From Tsukamurella pulmonis (GTDB lineage Bacteria; Actinomycetota; Actinomycetes; Mycobacteriales; Mycobacteriaceae), in NCBI RefSeq assembly GCF_900103175.1, contig NZ_FNLF01000002.1:806001-870000 (forward strand): a stretch of DNA of 64,000 nt. Reading direction: 5' to 3'. Position numbers and translations under genes: made by a program. Under the pieces are notes generated by a model. That model saw only the letters and a program-made list of their open reading frames with translations, searched no databases and was not told the DNA's origin. Below, in pieces: positions 8,608 to 17,312 of this stretch (positions within the stretch are counted from its first letter, which is position 1; each line of letters starts with the position of its first letter).

Positions 8608-9342
8608 ATGACGAAGCGTCAGTTCCTCGCCCCGATCGCGATCCTTCCGGTGGCGGCCATCGCCCTGTCGGGCTGCACGACCAACGAGGAGCCCGCGGAC
8701 AGCCCCGGAACGACGCCCGCCGTCGTCACGGGCGCGACGGTGCCCGCCCAGGGCCCCGTCCGCAGCCTCGACCCCAACGCCCACGGCGAGGAGCCCGCGG
8801 GCGGCGAGAGCGCGCCGTCGTCCGGCGCCGCCGAGGCGTCGCTCGTCAAGCCCGACGGCAGCAGCGCCGGCAAGGCCACCTTCTCGGAGAAGGACGGCGT
8901 CGTCGTGGTCGACGTGCGCGTCACCGGCCTGCCGGCCGGCTTCCACGGCATGCACATCCACGAGGTGGGCAAGTGCGAGCCGAACTCGGTCGCCAAGAAC
9001 GGCGCCCCCGGCTCGGCCACCAACTTCGGCTCGGCGGGCGGCCACTGGCAGAAGCCGGGCGCCTCGGGCCACCCGATGACCGGCGACCTGGTCTCGATCT
9101 ACGTCAACGCCAACGGCACGGGCCAGACGGTCACCAGCACCGGCGCGTTCACCCTCGCGGACATCAAGAAGAACGCCGAGGGCAACGCCCTGATGATCCA
9201 CGCGGGCCCGGACAACTTCGGCAACATCCCGTCCTCGCGCTACGCCAACGTCGTTCCCGGCCAGCCGGTGCCCGACGAGACCACCCTGAGCACCGGCGAC
9301 GCCGGCGGGCGCATCGCCTGCGGCGTGATCAAGGTCGGTTAG
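8608..9342 (+). CDS. sodC: Cu/Zn superoxide dismutase lipoprotein
   Basis: A 244-residue secreted enzyme that converts superoxide to peroxide and oxygen at the cell surface. It begins with a lipoprotein signal peptide (lipobox LSGC, Cys23), then an Ala/Gly/Ser-rich linker. The SOD core has HGMHIHEVGKCEPNS (copper ligands and the first disulfide Cys), the zinc loop around GGHWQKPGASGHPMTGDL, and RIACGVI with the second disulfide Cys. An AAGGAG ribosome site precedes the ATG. It corresponds to Rv0432. Confidence 0.96.
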   Translation: MTKRQFLAPIAILPVAAIALSGCTTNEEPADSPGTTPAVVTGATVPAQGPVRSLDPNAHGEEPAGGESAPSSGAAEASLVKPDGSSAGKATFSEKDGVVVVDVRVTGLPAGFHGMHIHEVGKCEPNSVAKNGAPGSATNFGSAGGHWQKPGASGHPMTGDLVSIYVNANGTGQTVTSTGAFTLADIKKNAEGNALMIHAGPDNFGNIPSSRYANVVPGQPVPDETTLSTGDAGGRIACGVIKVG

Positions 9343-9344
9343 TC

Positions 9345-10481
9345 ATCGAGCCCGTCGCCTTCGCGGCGTCGCCGCGGCCGACGATCGGTGTCGAATGGGA
9401 ATTCGCACTCGTCGACCGCGAGACCTCGGACCTGGTCAGTAGGGCCGGGGAGCTGTTCGACGGGGTGCGGGCCTCCCGCCCGGACATCGCCTCCCAGGTG
9501 CACTCGGAGATGCTCCGCAACACCGTCGAGGTGGTGACGGGCGTCTGTGAGAACACCGCCGAGGCGATGGCGGACCTGGCGGCGGTGATCCGCGCGGTGC
9601 GCGAGACCTCCGACCCGATGGGCGTGGAGCTCTTCGGTGCGGGCACGCACCCGTTCGCGCAGTGGAACGCGCAGCAGCTCACCGAGAACCCGCGCTACGA
9701 CGAGTTGATCGCCCGCACCCAGTGGTGGGGCCGGCAGATGCTGATCTGGGGCGTGCACGTGCACGTCGGGGTGAACCATCGCGACAAGGTGCTGCCGATC
9801 ATCTCGGCGCTGCTCAACCACTACCCGCACCTGCTGGCGCTCTCCGCCAGCTCTCCGATGTGGGGCGGCCACGACACCGGCTACGCGAGCACCCGCGCGA
9901 TGATGTTCCAGCAGTTGCCCACCGCGGGCCTGCCCTTCCAGTTCGAGCGGTGGAGCGAGTTCGAGCGCTTCGTGCACGACCAGAAGACGACCGGGATCAT
10001 CGATGATCTCAACGAGATCCGCTGGGACATCCGGCCCGCGTGCCACCTGGGCACCATCGAGGTGCGGATCTGCGACGGGATGTCCTCGTTCGCGGAGCTC
10101 GAGGCCGTGGTCGCGCTGATCCACTGCCTCGTCGTGTGGCTCGACGGCCGGCTCGACGCCGGCGAGACCCTGCCGACGCTGCCGCCGTGGCACGTGCAGG
10201 AGAACAAGTGGCGCGCCGCCCGCTACGGCCTCGACGCCATCATCATCCAGGACGCCGACAACAACGAGCGCCTGGTCACCGAGGACCTCGACGACCTGCT
10301 CGAGCAGCTGGCGCCCATCGCCCGCCGGCTCGGCTGCACCCGCGAGCTGGAGGCCGTCGCCGCGATCCCGCGCCACGGCGCCTCCTACCAGCGGCAGCGG
10401 ATGGTCGCCGACGGGGTGTGCAGCACCGACGCGTACCGCGACGTGGTCCGGTCGGTGACCGGCGAGCTGATCCTGCCGTAG
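9345..10481 (+). CDS. Glutamate-cysteine ligase-like (YbdK family), non-ATG start
   Basis: A carboxylate-amine ligase of the YbdK/GCS2 family, counterpart of Rv0433, of about 378 residues. Conserved blocks include GVEWEFALVD near the N terminus, ELFGAGTHPFAQW, WGRQMLIWGVHVHVGVN, ENKWRAARYGLDA and GASYQRQRM. Family members can join glutamate and cysteine, but the physiological role here is not known, since these bacteria normally use mycothiol. No ATG, GTG or TTG lies between the sodC coding region and GVEWEF in this frame. The best fit is an ATC codon at 9345, three bases after the sodC stop, with AAGG ten bases before it. The start is therefore uncertain. Confidence 0.85.
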   Translation: MEPVAFAASPRPTIGVEWEFALVDRETSDLVSRAGELFDGVRASRPDIASQVHSEMLRNTVEVVTGVCENTAEAMADLAAVIRAVRETSDPMGVELFGAGTHPFAQWNAQQLTENPRYDELIARTQWWGRQMLIWGVHVHVGVNHRDKVLPIISALLNHYPHLLALSASSPMWGGHDTGYASTRAMMFQQLPTAGLPFQFERWSEFERFVHDQKTTGIIDDLNEIRWDIRPACHLGTIEVRICDGMSSFAELEAVVALIHCLVVWLDGRLDAGETLPTLPPWHVQENKWRAARYGLDAIIIQDADNNERLVTEDLDDLLEQLAPIARRLGCTRELEAVAAIPRHGASYQRQRMVADGVCSTDAYRDVVRSVTGELILP

Positions 10482-10531: not shown

Positions 10532-10554
10532 TTAACGATAATCGTTGTCGTTAA
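10532..10554. promoter_or_regulatory. Fur/Zur-type operator before the metallophore operon
   Basis: Seven-base inverted arms TTAACGA and TCGTTAA flank a nine-base centre. Inside is a perfect 6-1-6 inverted repeat AACGAT-A-ATCGTT, the spacing used by Fur-superfamily repressors (Fur, Zur, Nur). It differs from the IdeR/DtxR consensus seen elsewhere in this window. It ends ten bases before the GTG of the permease gene and includes GATAAT, a plausible -10 hexamer, so binding would block transcription. Metal identity is inferred; zinc is my first guess. Confidence 0.65.
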
Positions 10555-10563
10555 TGTTGCCGC

Positions 10564-11631
10564 GTGTCCTCCGCCCCACCGCTTCCCCGCTCCGGCGGAG
10601 CCCCGTTCCTCCTCGTCGGAGCGCTCGTCGTCGTCCTGCTCGGCTCGATGGCCGTCGCGGTCTCGCTCGGTGCCGCGACGGTGCCCCTCGCCGACGTCCG
10701 GCGCCTGATCTGGGCGGCCCTCGGCAACGGGACGATCGCCCGCGAGGACTTCTCGACCTACTCGATCCTGTGGGACCTCCGCGTCCCCCGGGTACTGCTC
10801 GCGGCCCTCGTCGGCGCGGGGCTCGCGATCGCGGGGGTGGCCTGCCAGGCGCTCGTCCGCAACCCGCTCGCCGATCCGTTCATCCTCGGCATCTCCAGCG
10901 GCGCCTCCGTCGGCGCCAGCTTCGTGGTGACCACCGGCGTGGTGGCCGGGCTGGGCGTCGCGGGCACCGCGGGGGCGGCGTTCGTCACCGCCGTCCTCGC
11001 CTCGATCCTGGTGTACCTACTCAGCCGGACCCCGGACGGCGCACTGCACCCCGTCCGCCTGGTCCTCACGGGCGTCGTGCTCGCCTTCGCCTTCCAGGGG
11101 CTCGCCGGCGCGATCGTGTTCTTCGATCCGGTCGGCGACGCCGCGCGCTCGGTGATGTTCTGGCTGCTCGGCGGGCTCGGCGGCGCGCAGTGGTCGGTGC
11201 TGCCGCTCGTCGCGGCGACGGTCGTCGCCGGCGCGGTGGTCACCGGTCGCCTCGCCGGGACGCTCGACGTCCTGGCGCAGGGCGACGAGGCGGCCTCCGC
11301 GCTCGGCCTCGATCCGCACCGCGCACGCCGCGCACTGTTCCTGGTCATCGTCGTGCTGACCTCGGTGCTGGTCGCCGTCGCGGGCACCGTGGGCTTCGTC
11401 GGGCTCGTCGTCCCGCACGCCGTCCGGATGATCGTCGGGCCCGCGCACCGCCGGGTGCTGCTGCTCGCCCCGCTCGTCGGCGCGGTCCTGCTGGTATGGG
11501 TGGACCTGCTCAGCAGGCTGCTCGTGGCGCCGCGCGAGCTGCCGCTGGGCATCGTGACCGCCGTGGTCGGGGTACCGGTCTTCGTTGTGCTGCTGCGGCG
11601 CCGCGGAGGCCTGCTCGGTGGTGCCGCGTGA
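10564..11631 (+). CDS. FecCD-type metal/metallophore ABC permease
   Basis: A 355-residue permease of the FecCD/BtuC type with about ten hydrophobic segments. The diagnostic NPLADPFILGISSGASVGAS block and the coupling-helix region ASALGLDPHRARR are present, and the C terminus has GLVVPHAVRM and PRELPLGIVTA. Such permeases import iron-siderophores, haem, cobalamin or other metal chelates. The GTG start sits ten bases after a Fur/Zur-type operator with no strong ribosome site, so a leaderless or near-leaderless transcript is possible. It is the first of seven genes. Confidence 0.92.
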   Translation: MSSAPPLPRSGGAPFLLVGALVVVLLGSMAVAVSLGAATVPLADVRRLIWAALGNGTIAREDFSTYSILWDLRVPRVLLAALVGAGLAIAGVACQALVRNPLADPFILGISSGASVGASFVVTTGVVAGLGVAGTAGAAFVTAVLASILVYLLSRTPDGALHPVRLVLTGVVLAFAFQGLAGAIVFFDPVGDAARSVMFWLLGGLGGAQWSVLPLVAATVVAGAVVTGRLAGTLDVLAQGDEAASALGLDPHRARRALFLVIVVLTSVLVAVAGTVGFVGLVVPHAVRMIVGPAHRRVLLLAPLVGAVLLVWVDLLSRLLVAPRELPLGIVTAVVGVPVFVVLLRRRGGLLGGAA

Positions 11632-12377
11632 AGGTCGAACTGCGCGGGATCACGGTCGACATCAACGGAATCCGCATCCTCGACGACATCTCACTGGTCA
11701 TCGACGCGGGCGCACACGTCGGGCTGATCGGCCCCAACGGGAGCGGCAAGTCGACTCTGTTGCGCTGCCTGTACCGGGCGATCGAGCCCTCGGCCGGCAC
11801 CGTCCGCGTCGCGGGGGACGACCTGCACGCGTTGCGCCGCAAGGAGGCGGCGCGCCGCATCGCCGCGGTCACGCAGAGCGAATCCGGGCACCTCGGGTTC
11901 ACGGCGGGGGAGACGGTGATGCTGGGACGGTTCGCGCACGGCGACGCCGGCAGCACGACGGCCGCCCGCGCCTGCGCGGACGCGCTCGCCGCCGTCGGCG
12001 CCACCCACCTGGGCCCCCGCAGCGTGCTGGACCTCTCCGGCGGCGAGCGCCAGCGCGTCCTCATCGCCCGCGCGCTGGCGCAGGACACTCCGGTCCTCCT
12101 GCTCGACGAGCCGCTCAACCACCTCGACGTCCGGCACCAGCTCGACCTGCTGCGCCTCCTGCGGGCCAGCGCCAAGACCACCGTCACCGCCATCCACGAC
12201 ATCGACCTCGCGGCCCAGAGCTGCGATCGGCTCGTCCTCCTGGACGCGGGGCGCGTGGTCGCCACCGGCACCCCCGCCGAGGTGCTGACGCCGGACCGCG
12301 TCGAGGCCGTCTACGGCGTCCGGCCCACCGTCGTGGCGACCGCCGGCGGCCCGCCGCGCATCAGCTTCGACCTCTAG
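11628..12377 (+). CDS. FecE-type ABC transporter ATPase
   Basis: A 249-residue ATPase for the preceding permease, with Walker A GPNGSGKST, signature LSGGERQRV, Walker B VLLLDEPLNHLD and the switch His in TAIHDIDLA. This is the FecE/BtuD pattern. The GTG start overlaps the permease stop (GTGA). A related set of three ABC genes is labelled a proposed F420-0 transporter in some automatic annotations, but the operator and neighbours here fit metal uptake better. Confidence 0.93.
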   Translation: MKVELRGITVDINGIRILDDISLVIDAGAHVGLIGPNGSGKSTLLRCLYRAIEPSAGTVRVAGDDLHALRRKEAARRIAAVTQSESGHLGFTAGETVMLGRFAHGDAGSTTAARACADALAAVGATHLGPRSVLDLSGGERQRVLIARALAQDTPVLLLDEPLNHLDVRHQLDLLRLLRASAKTTVTAIHDIDLAAQSCDRLVLLDAGRVVATGTPAEVLTPDRVEAVYGVRPTVVATAGGPPRISFDL

Positions 12378-12405
12378 CCCCCTCACCGATCGAAAGGATC
12401 GACCG

Positions 12406-13404
12406 ATGCACTCCCGCCCTCTGCTCGCCGCCCTGGCGGCGAGCGCCCTGCTCGCGGTCACCGCGTGCGGCGCCCGTCCCGCCGAGTCGGCGACGGACCT
12501 CATCGACGTCACCAACTGCGGTGTGCACCAGCAGTACCGGTCGCCCACGGCCGCCGTGCCCTACGACGTCTCGGCGATCGAGAAGATGTTCGCGCTCGGG
12601 CTCACCGACCGCATCAAGGGCATCGCCCTGCCGAAGACGGTGCACGGGGTGATCGCCAAGTCCCCCTACCGCGACGACTACGCGAAGGTGCCGATCATCA
12701 GCGACGGCGTCCTCGCGCAGGAGCCGCTCGTCGCCGCCAAGGCCGACTGGGTATTCGCGGGCTGGCAGGCCGGGTTCAGTCCGGCCCGCGGCGTCACCCC
12801 CGAATCCCTGGGCAAGCTGCGGATCGACAGCTACATGCAGGAGGAGACCTGCTACAACTACGGCGCCGATCCCGCGCCCCGGCCGATCGATCCCCTCGCG
12901 GACACCTATGCCGATCTCACCAACCTCGGCGCGATCTTCCGGGTGCAGGACCGCGCGGCGGCGCTCGTGGACGGGCTCCGCACCCGGCAGCGCGGGCTGG
13001 AGGAGCGCGCGGCCCGTAAGAGCGTCCGGCCCTCGGTCTTCGTCTACGACTCCGGCACGGCGGAGCCCTACACCGCCGGCCGGCGCGCCGCCGCCGACCA
13101 GGTGGTCTCCCTCGCCGGCGGTCGCTCGGTCACCCACGACGTGGACGGCCGGTGGACCACCGTCGGCTGGGAGTCCGTCGTCCGCTCCCAGCCCGAGGTG
13201 ATCGTCATCGTCGACTACGACAAGCAGCCCGCGCAGCAGAAGATCGACTACCTGCGGCAGTCCTCTCCGATCAAGGACTCACCGGCCGTGCGGGAGAACC
13301 GCATCCGGGTGGTGGACTACGCCGAGCTGGTGGCGAGCCCGCGCAACCTCGACGCCGCAGCGGCGCTCGCGGACTACCTGGAGCAGAGCGGGGTGGCCCG
13401 ATGA
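12406..13404 (+). CDS. Periplasmic-binding lipoprotein of metal-chelate transporter
   Basis: A 332-residue FecB/BtuF-like binding protein anchored by a lipobox (VTAC, Cys21). The two-lobed type III fold is indicated by the first-lobe motifs around KMFALGLTDRI and by the second lobe beginning RPSVFVYDSGTAEPYTAG. Three non-lipobox cysteines occur (in TNCGVHQQY, EETCYNY and the N-terminal region), with a nearby HQQY, which may form a disulfide or touch ligand. A GAAAGGA ribosome site lies seven bases before the ATG. It should deliver the chelate to the two upstream transporter genes. Confidence 0.88.
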   Translation: MHSRPLLAALAASALLAVTACGARPAESATDLIDVTNCGVHQQYRSPTAAVPYDVSAIEKMFALGLTDRIKGIALPKTVHGVIAKSPYRDDYAKVPIISDGVLAQEPLVAAKADWVFAGWQAGFSPARGVTPESLGKLRIDSYMQEETCYNYGADPAPRPIDPLADTYADLTNLGAIFRVQDRAAALVDGLRTRQRGLEERAARKSVRPSVFVYDSGTAEPYTAGRRAAADQVVSLAGGRSVTHDVDGRWTTVGWESVVRSQPEVIVIVDYDKQPAQQKIDYLRQSSPIKDSPAVRENRIRVVDYAELVASPRNLDAAAALADYLEQSGVAR

Positions 13405-14195
13405 CCGCGCCCGGCACCGTCGCCGACGTCCTCGATCTCGCCCGTGGGGCGGAGCAGGACGCGGTCGCCCGCAGCGTCTTCTTCGTCGCGCACGGCACCC
13501 GCCTCGCGGGGAGCGATCAGCGCTACCGCAACCGGTACGTCCTCGTGCGCGTCGGGGATTCCTTCGGCGCGTGCGCCTTCGAGGAGGGCGAGCTCGACCC
13601 GGACGTCGCGGACCTGTCCGGGGAGCCCCTCACGGCACTGCTCGATCACGCGGCGCAACCGCTGCGGATCGCCGCCGCGGACGCGGCGCTCGGTGCCGCG
13701 GCCCCGCACCGCGAGGATCCGCGCGCCGAACTGCGCACCCTGCCCACCGGCACCCCCGACGAGCGGGCCGTCGCGCGGGACGCGGCGGTCGCGGAACTGC
13801 TCACCGTCGCGCCCGGCGCCCGCGTGGCCCTCATCGGCGTGGTGAACCCCCTCGTCGCGGCCATCCGAGAGCGGGGCGGCGAGCCGCTGCTCGCGGACCG
13901 GAACCTGCAGCGCACCCACTGGGGCGACCCCGTCGCGGACGACCACCACGCCGTGATCGCCGAGGCCGATGCGGTGCTCGCGACCGGAATGACTCTGGGC
14001 AACGGCAGTTTCGACGAGATCCTCGCCACCTGCCGGGAGCGCGGCGTGCCGCTCGCCGTGTACGCGCAGAGCGGTTCCGCCGTCGCGCGCGCCTTCCTCG
14101 GCGCGGGCCTGACCGCCCTCTCGGCCGAGCACTTCCCGTTCTCCCAGTTCTCCGCCGACGCCTCGCCGATGTACCTGTACCGGGGGCACGCATGA
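13401..14195 (+). CDS. DUF364 / Rossmann-like putative metal-chelation protein
   Basis: A 264-residue protein matching the DUF364 type, which combines an N-terminal enolase-N-like part with a Rossmann-like domain. The recognisable parts are the N-terminal VFFVAHGTRLAGSDQRYRN region and the C-terminal stretch VALIGVVNPLVAAIRERGG, ADAVLATGMTLGNGSFDEIL and VPLAVYAQSGSA. The family has been predicted to bind or chelate heavy metals, without firm biochemistry. It overlaps the binding-protein gene and the MFS gene by four bases each. I infer a biosynthetic or metal-handling role. Confidence 0.75.
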   Translation: MTAPGTVADVLDLARGAEQDAVARSVFFVAHGTRLAGSDQRYRNRYVLVRVGDSFGACAFEEGELDPDVADLSGEPLTALLDHAAQPLRIAAADAALGAAAPHREDPRAELRTLPTGTPDERAVARDAAVAELLTVAPGARVALIGVVNPLVAAIRERGGEPLLADRNLQRTHWGDPVADDHHAVIAEADAVLATGMTLGNGSFDEILATCRERGVPLAVYAQSGSAVARAFLGAGLTALSAEHFPFSQFSADASPMYLYRGHA

Positions 14196-15397
14196 GCGCA
14201 CCGCTGGACCGCCCGCTGCCCGACGGGGTTCTCGTCCGCGCGATCTGGCCCCTGCTCGCGGCCGCCGCGCTCGGCCTGGTGCCGTTCACCGTGATGGCGA
14301 ACTTCCTCGTGGCCATCGCCGCCGACGCCCACGCGGGGGTCGACCTCATCGGCAGCCTGCGGGGGCTCGGCGGCGTCGCCGCCCTGCTGGTCGGCGTCGC
14401 GGCCGCGCCCCTGCTGGACCGGCTCTCCCGCTCCTCGGTCGCCGCGCTTGCCCTGCTGGTGCTCGCGGTGGGCTGCGCCCTTGCGCTGCAGGGCAGTACG
14501 GCGGCATGGATCGGCTTCTGCCTGCTGATCGGGGCGGGCACCGCGGTGCTCAACCCCGCGCTCTCGGCGATGGCCGCCGACCGGTTCGCGTCGCCCGCCG
14601 CATCCGCGCGCGCCGCGACCCTGGTCTCCTCGACGATGACGCTCACCGCCGTCCTCGCCGCCCCGGTACTCGCGCTGCCCGCCGTGCTCTGGGGATGGCG
14701 CGTCGACATGGCCGCGACCGCGGTGGTGCTGCTCGTCGTCGCCGTACTGGTGTTCCGTCGGCGCGACCCGCACGGCGGCGACACGTCGGTGAGCTACCTG
14801 CAGGCGTTCCGGACCGTCCGGGCCCTGCCCGGCGCGCTCGAGGCACTGGCGGTCTCGATGCTGCGGACGCTGGCCTTCATGGGCTCGCTCGCCTACATCG
14901 CCGCCGCGTTCGGGCAGCGTTTCGGCATCGGAACCGGCTGGTTCTCCCTGGTCTGGGCGACCTCCGGCCTGGCCTTCTTCCTCGGGAACTTCCTGGGCGG
15001 CAAGATGATGCAGGATCGCGGTGCGGACCGCCTGTTCGGCACGGTGATGACCGCTATCGTCGTCGCCACCGTCGCGATGGTGGGCCTGTACACGGTGCCG
15101 CACCTCGCCCTTGCGTGGCCGATGGTGGCGCTCGTCTCCGCCGCGCACGCCGTGATCGCCGCGGCGGTGACCACCACGCTGGTCCGCACGGCGGGTCCCG
15201 TCCGCGGCACCGTCCTCTCCCTCAACGGTGCGGCGCAGAGCGTCGGCGTCTTCGCCGGCGCCGGGCTGGCCGGTGCGGCGCTCGCGATCGGGGGATGGAC
15301 GGGCGTGGGCCTGGTACTCGGCGGCGCCACCGCGCTCGCCGCCGTCTTCGCCCGGCGCGCGCTGCGCCGGGCCGAAGCGGCGGAGGCGTCGGCATGA
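14192..15397 (+). CDS. MFS transporter, putative metallophore exporter
   Basis: A 401-residue major facilitator protein with about twelve hydrophobic segments, a central loop around residues 185-205 (RRRDPHGGDTSVSYLQ) and the helix 2-3 motif region PLLDRLSRSS. It resembles drug/sugar-type MFS exporters, in which the substrate cannot be read from sequence. Its location between a chelate importer and two small-molecule enzymes, with ATGA overlaps on both sides, suggests that it exports the molecule the importer later recovers. That role is inferred. Confidence 0.82.
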   Translation: MSAPLDRPLPDGVLVRAIWPLLAAAALGLVPFTVMANFLVAIAADAHAGVDLIGSLRGLGGVAALLVGVAAAPLLDRLSRSSVAALALLVLAVGCALALQGSTAAWIGFCLLIGAGTAVLNPALSAMAADRFASPAASARAATLVSSTMTLTAVLAAPVLALPAVLWGWRVDMAATAVVLLVVAVLVFRRRDPHGGDTSVSYLQAFRTVRALPGALEALAVSMLRTLAFMGSLAYIAAAFGQRFGIGTGWFSLVWATSGLAFFLGNFLGGKMMQDRGADRLFGTVMTAIVVATVAMVGLYTVPHLALAWPMVALVSAAHAVIAAAVTTTLVRTAGPVRGTVLSLNGAAQSVGVFAGAGLAGAALAIGGWTGVGLVLGGATALAAVFARRALRRAEAAEASA

Positions 15398-16314
15398 GCG
15401 CCGCGCGCAACCGGTCCCGCGGCCGCGGGGTGGGGCGCAGCCCCGGGCACCACGGCGAGATCCTGCAGGGCCGCTTCCGCTGTCCCGTGCTCGACGAATG
15501 CCCGGGCCTGGTGACGGTGCCCATCGGCACCGTCGGCTCCGTCGCGGTCTTCGAGCCGGACTCCTCCGGCGCGGTGCGCGCACACGCCGCGGGGGACGGG
15601 CACGCGGTCAGCAAGGCCCGCCGCGCGGCCGAGGCGACCGTCGCGCACCTGCTCTCGCGCGGCGCCTGCGGGTTCGACGGCGGGGACCTGCGCATCGCGC
15701 GGACCACCGCGATCGGCCTCGGCCTGGGATCGTCGACGGCGGACGTCCTCGCCGCGGTGCGCGCCGTCGCCGACAGCGGCGGGATCGAGCTGGACGCCGG
15801 GACCGTCGCGCATCTGGCCGTCGGCGCCGAAGGGGCGTCCGATCCGCTGTGGTCCGATCGGCCGATCCTGTTCGCGCACCGGCACGGTCACGTCATCGAG
15901 GAACTCGGCCCGCACCTGCCGCCGATGCTGCTCGTGCGCTGCGTGCTCGGCGGCCCCGTCGACACGCTCGCGCTCCGGCCCCTCGGCGAGGGCGAGGTCG
16001 ACGAGTACGAACAGCTCCGGGCACTGCTGCGCCGGGCGATCGCCGGACGCGACGCGGCGGGCGTCGCCGCCGTCGCCACGCGCAGCGCCGTCCTCAACCA
16101 GAGCCGCCACTACAAGCCCGGCCTGGATCGGCTCATCGCGTCGGCTCGACGGCGCGGTGCGCTCGGTGTCCAGGTGGCGCACTCCGGGAACGTGGCGGGC
16201 CTGCTCTTCGATCATGAGCACCCGCCGGGCCGCCTGCGCCGCGCGTGCGCGGCGATGCGCGACGAGGGCATCCGCGTGGACGACGCACCCGTCGTGATCG
16301 GCGGTGCCGCATGA
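15394..16314 (+). CDS. GHMP kinase, PduX (L-threonine kinase)-like
   Basis: A 306-residue GHMP-superfamily kinase. The N-terminal GRSPGHHGEILQGRF resembles the CGELxQG entry of PduX-type L-threonine kinases, and the ATP loop GLGLGSSTAD (residues 108-117) is the GHMP motif 2. The C-terminal glycine-rich segment GALGVQVAHSGNVAGLLFD fits motif 3. PduX makes O-phospho-L-threonine for cobamide synthesis, but no cobamide genes are nearby. With the next gene, I infer activation of a hydroxy-amino acid (Thr or Ser) as its phosphate. It overlaps both neighbours by four bases. Confidence 0.8.
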   Translation: MSAARNRSRGRGVGRSPGHHGEILQGRFRCPVLDECPGLVTVPIGTVGSVAVFEPDSSGAVRAHAAGDGHAVSKARRAAEATVAHLLSRGACGFDGGDLRIARTTAIGLGLGSSTADVLAAVRAVADSGGIELDAGTVAHLAVGAEGASDPLWSDRPILFAHRHGHVIEELGPHLPPMLLVRCVLGGPVDTLALRPLGEGEVDEYEQLRALLRRAIAGRDAAGVAAVATRSAVLNQSRHYKPGLDRLIASARRRGALGVQVAHSGNVAGLLFDHEHPPGRLRRACAAMRDEGIRVDDAPVVIGGAA

Positions 16315-17312
16315 TGATCCACGGGCACATCGCCGAGGCGCTGAGCCGGCCCGCGCTGATCCGCGGCAGCGAGCGCCGCTACCTGCTGCGGTTCGAGTCG
16401 ATGAAGGTCGCCTCCGCCCGCGCCGCGCTGCGGGAGGCGCTCGCGGCGGGCCGGGTGCGGCCCGGCGGCACCGTCATCGACTCCTCGTCGGGGATCTACG
16501 CCTACGCGCTGGCGCTGGCCTGCCACGAGGCAGGGGTGCGCTGCCGCATCATCGGCTCCACCACCATCGACGAGGGCCTGCGCATCCAATTGCTGGCGCT
16601 GGGTGTCGAACTCGAGCAGATGCCGCCGTCCGCGTCGCTCAAGCTGGACCAGGACCGCCGCGTCCGCCGCATCACCGAACTGCTGGCCGATGACCCGTCG
16701 CTGCACTGGATGCGCCAGTACCACGATCCGGTGCACTACATCGGCTATCGCGAGATCGCCTGCGGCGCAGCGGCGGAACTCGCGGCGGAGGGCGTCGCGA
16801 CGGTGCGGCTCGTCGCGCCGGTCGGCTCCGGTGTCTCCAGCGGGGCGCTGCGCCTCGGGCTCGAGGAGGCCGGAATGGCCGTCGAACTGGTCGGGGTGCA
16901 GCCCTTCGGCAGCGTCACCTTCGGATCCGAGCACGTCGACGACCCCGCCATGCTCATCGCTGGCATCGGCTCGTCGATCCCGTTCGCCAACGTCCGGCAC
17001 GGGCTCTACGACGTGATCCACTGGGTGTCCTTCGACGTGGCCCGCGCCGGCACCCACCGACTGCTGCGGCAGCACGCGCTGTTCGCCGGGCTCTCCTCCG
17101 GCGCGGGGCATGTCGCCGCGGACTACGAGCAGGACCACGGCGCACCGGTCGACGCCACCGTGCAGGTGCTGCCGGACACCGGGCACCGCTACCAGGCGGC
17201 GCTCGTGGGGGACGGCCCGGCGGAGCCGGAACCGCCGCTGCTCGTGGACGATCCGGCGGAGATCGCGCTGCCGTGGTCGCGGATGCGATGGGCGCGGCGC
17301 GCCGGCCGCTAG
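16311..17312 (+). CDS. Cysteine-synthase-fold PLP-dependent enzyme
   Basis: A 333-residue fold-type II PLP enzyme. ESMKVASARAAL places the PLP lysine at residue 32. GSGVSSGAL (172-180) is the phosphate-binding glycine loop, LSSGAGHVAA (261-270) matches the family's GxSSGA block, and VLPDTGHRY is the C-terminal signature. The usual TSGNTG loop reads SSSGIY (58-63), so the Asn that normally touches the PLP ring is Ile. By analogy with SbnA, which joins phosphoserine to an amine donor, it may replace the phosphate made by the upstream kinase with a nucleophile. Substrates are unknown. Its TAG overlaps the convergent mnhG stop through CTAG. Confidence 0.82.
   Translation: MMIHGHIAEALSRPALIRGSERRYLLRFESMKVASARAALREALAAGRVRPGGTVIDSSSGIYAYALALACHEAGVRCRIIGSTTIDEGLRIQLLALGVELEQMPPSASLKLDQDRRVRRITELLADDPSLHWMRQYHDPVHYIGYREIACGAAAELAAEGVATVRLVAPVGSGVSSGALRLGLEEAGMAVELVGVQPFGSVTFGSEHVDDPAMLIAGIGSSIPFANVRHGLYDVIHWVSFDVARAGTHRLLRQHALFAGLSSGAGHVAADYEQDHGAPVDATVQVLPDTGHRYQAALVGDGPAEPEPPLLVDDPAEIALPWSRMRWARRAGR

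What the first reader, a model, noticed from the sequence alone, without database searches (positions are those of the whole stretch)
10532..17312. Seven-gene candidate non-NRPS metallophore system behind a Fur/Zur-type operator
One tightly overlapping operon joins a FecCD importer, a DUF364 protein predicted to chelate metals, an MFS exporter, a PduX-like GHMP kinase and a cysteine-synthase-fold PLP enzyme. This provides importer, exporter and a two-step small-molecule pathway under what looks like metal control. It is neither an NRPS nor a nicotianamine/opine (CntKLM) system, and I know of no described pathway with this set. It interrupts the otherwise conserved Rv0433-Rv0435c gene order, so it is probably an accessory insertion.
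Basis: partly seen in the sequence, partly recalled or inferred. Interest (0 to 1): 0.85.

Follow-up and report, generated by a model that had tools for sequence, protein, structure and literature searches.

The report
Zinc-controlled candidate metal-scavenging operon
Seven genes behind a likely zinc-repressor site look like a kit for making, exporting and re-importing a small zinc-binding molecule; related kits occur in many actinobacteria, but the product and the enzyme chemistry are not known.

Summary
Seven tightly packed genes (10564-17312) encode FecCD permease, ABC ATPase, substrate-binding protein, DUF364, MFS, GHMP kinase and an SbnA-like PLP enzyme, behind a palindrome at 10532-10554. 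Relatives are widespread: 417 PLP relatives, best 80 kept; DUF364, kinase, PLP and FecBCD stand together in 49 of 80 by strict criteria. A published Zur motif scores >=12/15 in 46 of 67 DUF364-bearing loci and 0 of 13 others. It is not the presumed EDDS operon. In the genus 12 of 16 genomes carry the PLP gene; three without it show an empty site. Best reading: a Zur-regulated, non-NRPS zincophore system with an enzyme set for which I found no description in a partial library. Product and chemistry are inferred, not shown.

The parts
10532..10554 (.). Zur-box-like operator TTAACGATAATCGTTGTCGTTAA (13 of 15 specified positions of taaTGaNAANNNTTNtCANta, by my count)
   Evidence: sequence; palindromes at the same distance in two congeners and similar boxes in another family; in-genome scan; published motif seen in passages of PMC5472717
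10564..11631 (+). FecCD-type ABC permease (355 aa)
   Evidence: Pfam PF01032 3.2e-81
11628..12377 (+). ABC transporter ATPase (249 aa)
   Evidence: PF00005 1.6e-31
12406..13404 (+). substrate-binding protein, FecB/BtuF type (332 aa)
   Evidence: PF01497 1.9e-11; NCBIfam TIGR03868 153.8 bits, below its 392.4 cut-off
13401..14195 (+). DUF364 protein (264 aa)
   Evidence: PF04016 2.1e-11; model pLDDT 93 with DUF364 crystal structures 3npg and 3l5o as top fold matches
14192..15397 (+). MFS transporter, inferred exporter (401 aa)
   Evidence: PF07690 3e-27; weak Cmx/CmrA efflux and CynX matches, far below cut-off
15394..16314 (+). GHMP-superfamily small-molecule kinase (306 aa)
   Evidence: PF00288 1.1e-8, PF08544 4.7e-5; relatives beside cysteine-synthase-family PLP genes in two proteobacterial plasmids opened
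16311..17312 (+). PLP enzyme of cysteine-synthase fold, SbnA-like (333 aa)
   Evidence: PF00291 5.6e-26; best NCBIfam model SbnA, 109 bits, under its 350-bit cut-off; top Foldseek match of the model is SbnA 5d84

Best explanation
A Zur-repressed, non-NRPS zincophore system. Inferred steps: (1) the GHMP kinase phosphorylates the hydroxyl of a small amino acid (threonine or serine the leading guesses); (2) the SbnA-like PLP enzyme replaces that phosphate with the amino group of a second amino acid, giving a small aminopolycarboxylate chelator; (3) DUF364 is a further enzyme of the pathway, or acts on the metal complex inside the cell; (4) the MFS exports the ligand; (5) FecBCD re-imports the metal complex. 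Shown by sequence: gene content, conservation of the set, and Zur-box motifs. Not shown: any substrate, the product, its metal, Zur binding, or the direction of the MFS.
For: Zur: a consensus of the window's and two congeners' operators gives 10 rows at 7 sites in the own genome, 0 for the reversed-pattern control (the operon's own hit is by construction). Four other sites stand at ZnuA + ABC ATPase, a CobW-family GTPase, ArsR + FUR regulators, and CobW/L28-L33-S14-S18, as in Zur regulons reviewed in PMC6103462 (passages). In 80 named loci a published Zur motif scores >=12/15 in cassette intergenic DNA of 46; 60 palindromic shuffles: mean 1.9, max 26. DUF364+ loci 46 of 67 (38 of 59 outside Tsukamurella), DUF364- 0 of 13. 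Gene set: 49 of 80 strict, 41 outside Tsukamurella, all 49 with an MFS of one of two types, 40 of 49 with a box >=12. The second MFS type matches an H+ antiporter model best and, weakly, enterobactin exporter EntS (36 bits, cut-off 324). Two DUF364+PLP loci have an SBP_bac_5 importer instead of FecBCD (in L190 DUF364 is just under cut-off, 22 vs 23 bits). PLP: top fold match SbnA; the PLP lysine and the positions of SbnA R132 and Y152 are K, R, Y (invariant in 33 rows), S185 is Gly.
Against: No biochemical, transcript or metabolite data. The PLP family lacks the Asn of the usual TSGN loop (SSSGIY here), so its reaction may differ from SbnA's. 13 of 67 DUF364+ loci have no close same-strand kinase: in 8 only a weaker (32-35%) GHMP hit on the other strand, in 5 none, so the kinase may not be essential or may be supplied elsewhere. 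13 of 80 loci lack DUF364; 10 of these are an ATP-grasp type without Zur box, so the PLP enzyme is not tied to zinc alone. One shuffled control reached 26 of 80. The loci are related, not independent. Less intergenic DNA was searched in DUF364- loci (mean 466 vs 1117 bases); over whole loci those ten still score at most 10, which also means that scores of 10 are near background. Two of 7 own-genome sites have no zinc gene beside them.
Confidence: 0.68

Rival explanations
1. The enzymes make an intracellular zinc buffer or cofactor; FecBCD imports a foreign metallophore or zinc complex, and the MFS does something else, so there is no self-made secreted ligand.
For: Only two to three enzymes are present; FecCD systems often import foreign siderophores (general knowledge). 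Metal and ligand specificity are untested.
Against: An MFS of one of two BLAST-distinct types accompanies the set in 65 of 80 loci and in all 49 strict ones, and importer types also swap: the enzymes keep company with both an MFS and a metallophore-type importer.
Confidence: 0.14
2. Zinc-sparing metabolism: kinase and PLP enzyme are stand-ins for zinc-dependent steps of amino-acid metabolism, like other paralogs in Zur regulons.
For: Zur regulons contain replacement enzymes and ribosomal proteins (PMC6103462 passages; own genome L065).
Against: Does not explain the dedicated FecBCD, MFS and DUF364; related kinase-PLP pairs also stand beside ATP-grasp and lyase genes in 6 of 20 fetched neighbourhoods, as in specialised metabolism.
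Confidence: 0.08
3. A corrinoid or F420-0-type salvage operon: FecBCD imports a cofactor precursor and the kinase is a PduX-type threonine kinase for the nucleotide loop.
For: NCBIfam's closest named families for the importer include F420-0 and B12 transporters, all below cut-off.
Against: Zur-box control; no cobamide gene among the seven; the PLP enzyme has the cysteine-synthase fold, not that of the aminotransferase-like CobD (recalled).
Confidence: 0.04

Closest known systems
[S,S]-EDDS system (aesA-D), Amycolatopsis japonica
   Same: actinobacterial operon behind a Zur-like box with a cysteine-synthase-fold PLP enzyme and an exporter, no NRPS; zinc/Zur control of EDDS is published (PMC9252823 passages)
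   Different: the presumed EDDS operon encodes OCD, Orn/Arg decarboxylase, PALP, MatE; no DUF364, kinase, FecBCD or MFS; its PALP aligns to the window PLP at 32% over only 196 aa.
Staphyloferrin B precursor enzyme SbnA
   Same: top fold match and best NCBIfam model of the PLP enzyme; R132 and Y152 positions kept
   Different: far under the SbnA cut-off; no SbnB-like gene among the seven; S185 is Gly; Asn of the substrate loop lost
Opine-like zincophores (staphylopine/pseudopaline, CntKLM)
   Same: logic of a small non-NRPS ligand with dedicated export and import (recalled; PMC7438024 seen in search listing only)
   Different: no nicotianamine-synthase-like or opine-dehydrogenase gene among the seven
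2,3-diaminobutyrate-type gene sets (friulimicin dabABC, recalled)
   Same: kinase + cysteine-synthase-fold PLP pair, found in 6 of 20 neighbourhoods with ATP-grasp and argininosuccinate-lyase-like genes
   Different: window operon has no lyase or ATP-grasp gene; those PLPs are only 30-37% identical
S. coelicolor SCO0472-SCO0476 Zur targets
   Same: reported Zur-regulated genes, SCO0472 a predicted substrate-binding lipoprotein (PMC6103462, PMC4726154, PMC6593405 passages)
   Different: homology to this operon not tested

Membership tests
Zur regulon | Zur box matching the genome's own Zur-type targets | tested here: met
   13/15 of the published actinobacterial motif by my count (motif)
Zur regulon | Zur binding and zinc-dependent expression | not testable with these tools
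   needs EMSA and transcripts
EDDS-type aminopolycarboxylate cluster | OCD + decarboxylase + PALP (gene set read from the presumed A. japonica operon) | tested here: not met
   no OCD or decarboxylase among the seven genes,
SbnA (TIGR03945) | score over the curated cut-off 349.95 | tested here: not met
   109.1 bits
Opine-like metallophore (CntKLM) | nicotianamine-synthase-like and opine dehydrogenase enzymes | tested here: not met
   Pfam of the seven genes
NRPS metallophore | NRPS modules | tested here: not met
   none among the seven genes
DUF364 (PF04016) | Pfam gathering score and fold | tested here: met
   44.1 vs 23 bits; fold matches 3npg, 3l5o
PduX L-threonine kinase | a PduX model or threonine kinase activity | tested here: inconclusive
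   GHMP domains only; no PduX model rang
metallophore system (function) | secreted metal-binding product | not testable with these tools
   needs metabolomics

The most novel reading that the evidence does not exclude
A new chemical class of zincophore, built by phosphorylation and PLP beta-replacement with a DUF364 enzyme and widespread in actinobacteria; its PLP core has been re-used with ATP-grasp ligases and other importers to make a wider family of ligands, perhaps for other metals.
Probability: 0.43. Interest if true: 0.87.

Novelty: new variant of a known kind. Interest (0 to 1): 0.73.

Why it matters
It would give zinc-starved actinobacteria, Streptomyces and Tsukamurella included, a metallophore route outside the classes tested here, and would give a pathway to DUF364, a family with crystal structures but, as far as I saw, no established function. 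The compact gene set makes the product directly testable.

Tried and rejected
Rejected: that this is the EDDS cluster. I suspected so after PMC10486106 (passages); but L156, the only PLP homolog at E <= 1e-60 in the presumed A. japonica genome, is an ATP-grasp type cluster, and the Zur-boxed operon L178 has other enzymes. That scan of A. japonica gave two sites only, the other (L177) without an evident zinc gene, and did not bring up znuA. Rejected: iron control (best IdeR-type match 12 of 19 in cassette intergenic DNA, 13 in one whole locus, L159). Rejected: corrinoid salvage (see rivals). Led nowhere: paper searches for phosphothreonine/SbnA, EDDS gene names, dabABC.

Literature: I found no description of this gene set (DUF364 + siderophore, 2 papers; Zur, metallophore, Streptomyces and others, 19 papers, listing only; 20 of 86 papers listed; DUF364 and GHMP kinase zero in all 20). 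The library lacks most subscription journals, incl. the EDDS and EDHA papers. No paper was read whole: all were seen as passages or listings.

Limits: genes in loci come from my own codon-score caller. Loose counts take any tblastn hit at E <= 1e-8 in a locus, so ATPase hits are unspecific and kinase hits include weak ones of 26-35%; the strict recount is. Only the best 80 of 417 PLP relatives were kept. Three of 13 DUF364- loci (L106, L132, L138) are on short or cut contigs. Of 38 kinase places I fetched 20, mostly the best. The tree holds 79 rows: 77 of 80 loci, the window and the presumed EDDS PALP, whose branch is very long. The record called plasmid of T. tyrosinosolvens carries deformylase and other likely chromosomal genes; I do not take it as proof of plasmid carriage.
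Full report
What is there. The window holds seven + strand genes between a GCS2-family gene (about 9339-10481) and the convergent mnhG of a Na+/H+ antiporter operon: FecCD permease, ABC ATPase, substrate-binding protein, DUF364, MFS, GHMP kinase and a PALP-family PLP enzyme. Five of six junctions are 4-base overlaps. A 23-base palindrome ends nine bases before the likely first start codon.

Is the operator Zur or Fur? The exact operator occurs once in the genome. A consensus of it with the operators of two congeners was scanned over the genome at up to 3 mismatches: 10 rows, 7 distinct sites, 0 with the reversed control pattern. One site is the operon, by construction. Four stand at znuA followed by an ABC ATPase gene, a CobW-family GTPase, an ArsR-FUR pair (the smtB-zur arrangement), and between a second CobW-family gene and genes for L28, L33, S14 and S18. 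Two (L062, inside an ORF; L066) have no zinc gene nearby and are probably chance. This resembles actinobacterial Zur regulons as tabulated in PMC6103462 (passages). The published actinobacterial motif taaTGaNAANNNTTNtCANta (PMC5472717, passages) agrees with the operator at 13 of 15 specified positions by my count.

Is the set conserved? The kinase is found in 33 of 249 genomes of the order at E <= 1e-10. Of 20 neighbourhoods fetched, 13 hold DUF364, kinase, PLP and FecBCD together, 6 hold the kinase and a more distant PLP with ATP-grasp and argininosuccinate-lyase-like genes (clustered with typed representatives), and 1 holds the kinase without these. A PLP-profile scan of genome contigs found 417 relatives; the best 80 were kept, from Tsukamurella, Rothia, Kocuria, Corynebacterium, Curtobacterium, Austwickia, Actinopolyspora, Amycolatopsis, Pseudonocardia, Nocardiopsis, many Streptomyces and others. 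DUF364, PLP, kinase and FecBCD are all in 56 of 80 by loose criteria and 49 of 80 by strict ones (same-strand kinase of at least 38% within 3 kb; 41 outside Tsukamurella). An MFS is in 65 of 80, as one of two types, never both, and in all 49 strict loci. A methyltransferase-like gene (c9) is in 13 of 80. DUF364 is in 67 of 80; of these 13 have no close same-strand kinase, 8 of them with only a weaker GHMP hit on the other strand. In the family of G138 (Pseudonocardiaceae by its named neighbours) 136 of 390 genomes carry the PLP gene at E <= 1e-60. In the window's genus, 12 of 16 genomes do; in three of the four without it the gcs2 gene is followed directly by mnhG, an empty site; in the fourth gcs2 lies at a contig end and was not read.

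Does the Zur box go with the set? In intergenic stretches around the cassette of the 80 loci the best match to the published motif is >=12/15 in 46; 60 palindromic shuffles give mean 1.9 and max 26 loci. All 46 bear DUF364: 46 of 67 (38 of 59 outside Tsukamurella) against 0 of 13 without it; at >=10 it is 64 of 67 against 1 of 13. The one (L138) is a 3.7-kb contig ending by the PLP gene. Less DNA was searched in the DUF364- loci (mean 466 vs 1117 bases), but the ten of ATP-grasp type score at most 10 even over whole loci; 10 is thus near background and 12 the safer line. In a PLP tree these ten form one supported clade nested in DUF364+ rows. The loci are related, so the counts are not independent events. 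Near single loci lie a FUR-family gene (L095) and a CobW-family gene (L118).

Chemistry. The PLP enzyme's model (pLDDT 89) matches SbnA best (5d84, E 1.4e-17, 22% identity). The lysine and the positions of SbnA R132 and Y152 are K, R and Y; S185 is Gly; the Asn of the TSGN loop is Ile. That R132, Y152 and S185 recognise O-phosphoserine is recalled; the PDB titles show only that Y152 and S185 variants were made. An O-phospho amino acid as substrate is plausible and would explain the kinase next to it; kinase relatives stand beside cysteine-synthase-family genes in the Azospirillum and Mesorhizobium records that I opened too. DUF364's model (pLDDT 93) matches the DUF364 crystal structures; the authors of 3l5o proposed condensation or hydrolysis in making metal-chelating compounds from genome context (PMC2954201, passages). 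The best guess is therefore an aminopolycarboxylate ligand; the product is not shown.

What it is not. The chromosome of 8,961,318 bases, which I recall as A. japonica's, has an operon behind a Zur-like box with OCD, Orn/Arg decarboxylase, PALP and MatE genes; I take it to be the EDDS operon. It shares with the window operon only a PALP-family enzyme (32% over 196 aa). The same genome's close PLP homolog sits in an ATP-grasp type cluster (L156) without a good Zur box (9/15).

Verdict. A probably Zur-controlled, accessory, widely conserved zincophore-like system with an enzyme set for which I found no description (partial library). It works, on this reading, like known zincophore systems; membership of the EDDS, SbnA and CntKLM families was tested and not met.

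Noticed in passing
L115, L124, L135, L137, L146, L156: A sister cluster type with a related PLP enzyme (51-53%), an ATP-grasp ligase and FecBCD (L156 with a Pfam-typed methyltransferase), without good Zur boxes: perhaps a ligand for another metal.
   Followed up: partly
L162 (G357), L190 (Rhodococcus sp. ZPP pRZP2): PLP + DUF364 clusters with an SBP_bac_5 (Opp/Nik/Cnt-type) importer instead of FecBCD; L162 adds a PhyH-type oxygenase, L190 an ATP-grasp and an enolase-superfamily gene.
   Followed up: partly
L118, L128, L133, L134, L139, L140, L141, L144: DUF364+PLP loci in which the only GHMP kinase hit is weaker (32-35%) and on the other strand.
   Followed up: partly
L051, L057, L058, L187: Kinase + PLP + ATP-grasp + argininosuccinate-lyase-like gene sets in actinobacteria and Azospirillum, perhaps di-amino-acid peptide pathways.
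   Followed up: no
L186 (NZ_LR134468.1): A record called plasmid 26 of T. tyrosinosolvens carries the operon with likely chromosomal neighbours; possibly an assembly piece.
   Followed up: no
L065 (own genome C2 about 3900247): Zur-box promoter between a CobW-family gene and L28-L33-S14-S18 genes.
   Followed up: yes
L188 (Mesorhizobium huakuii plasmid): Kinase-PLP pair beside a transketolase and a threonine synthase gene, close to an acyl-homoserine-lactone synthase.
   Followed up: no
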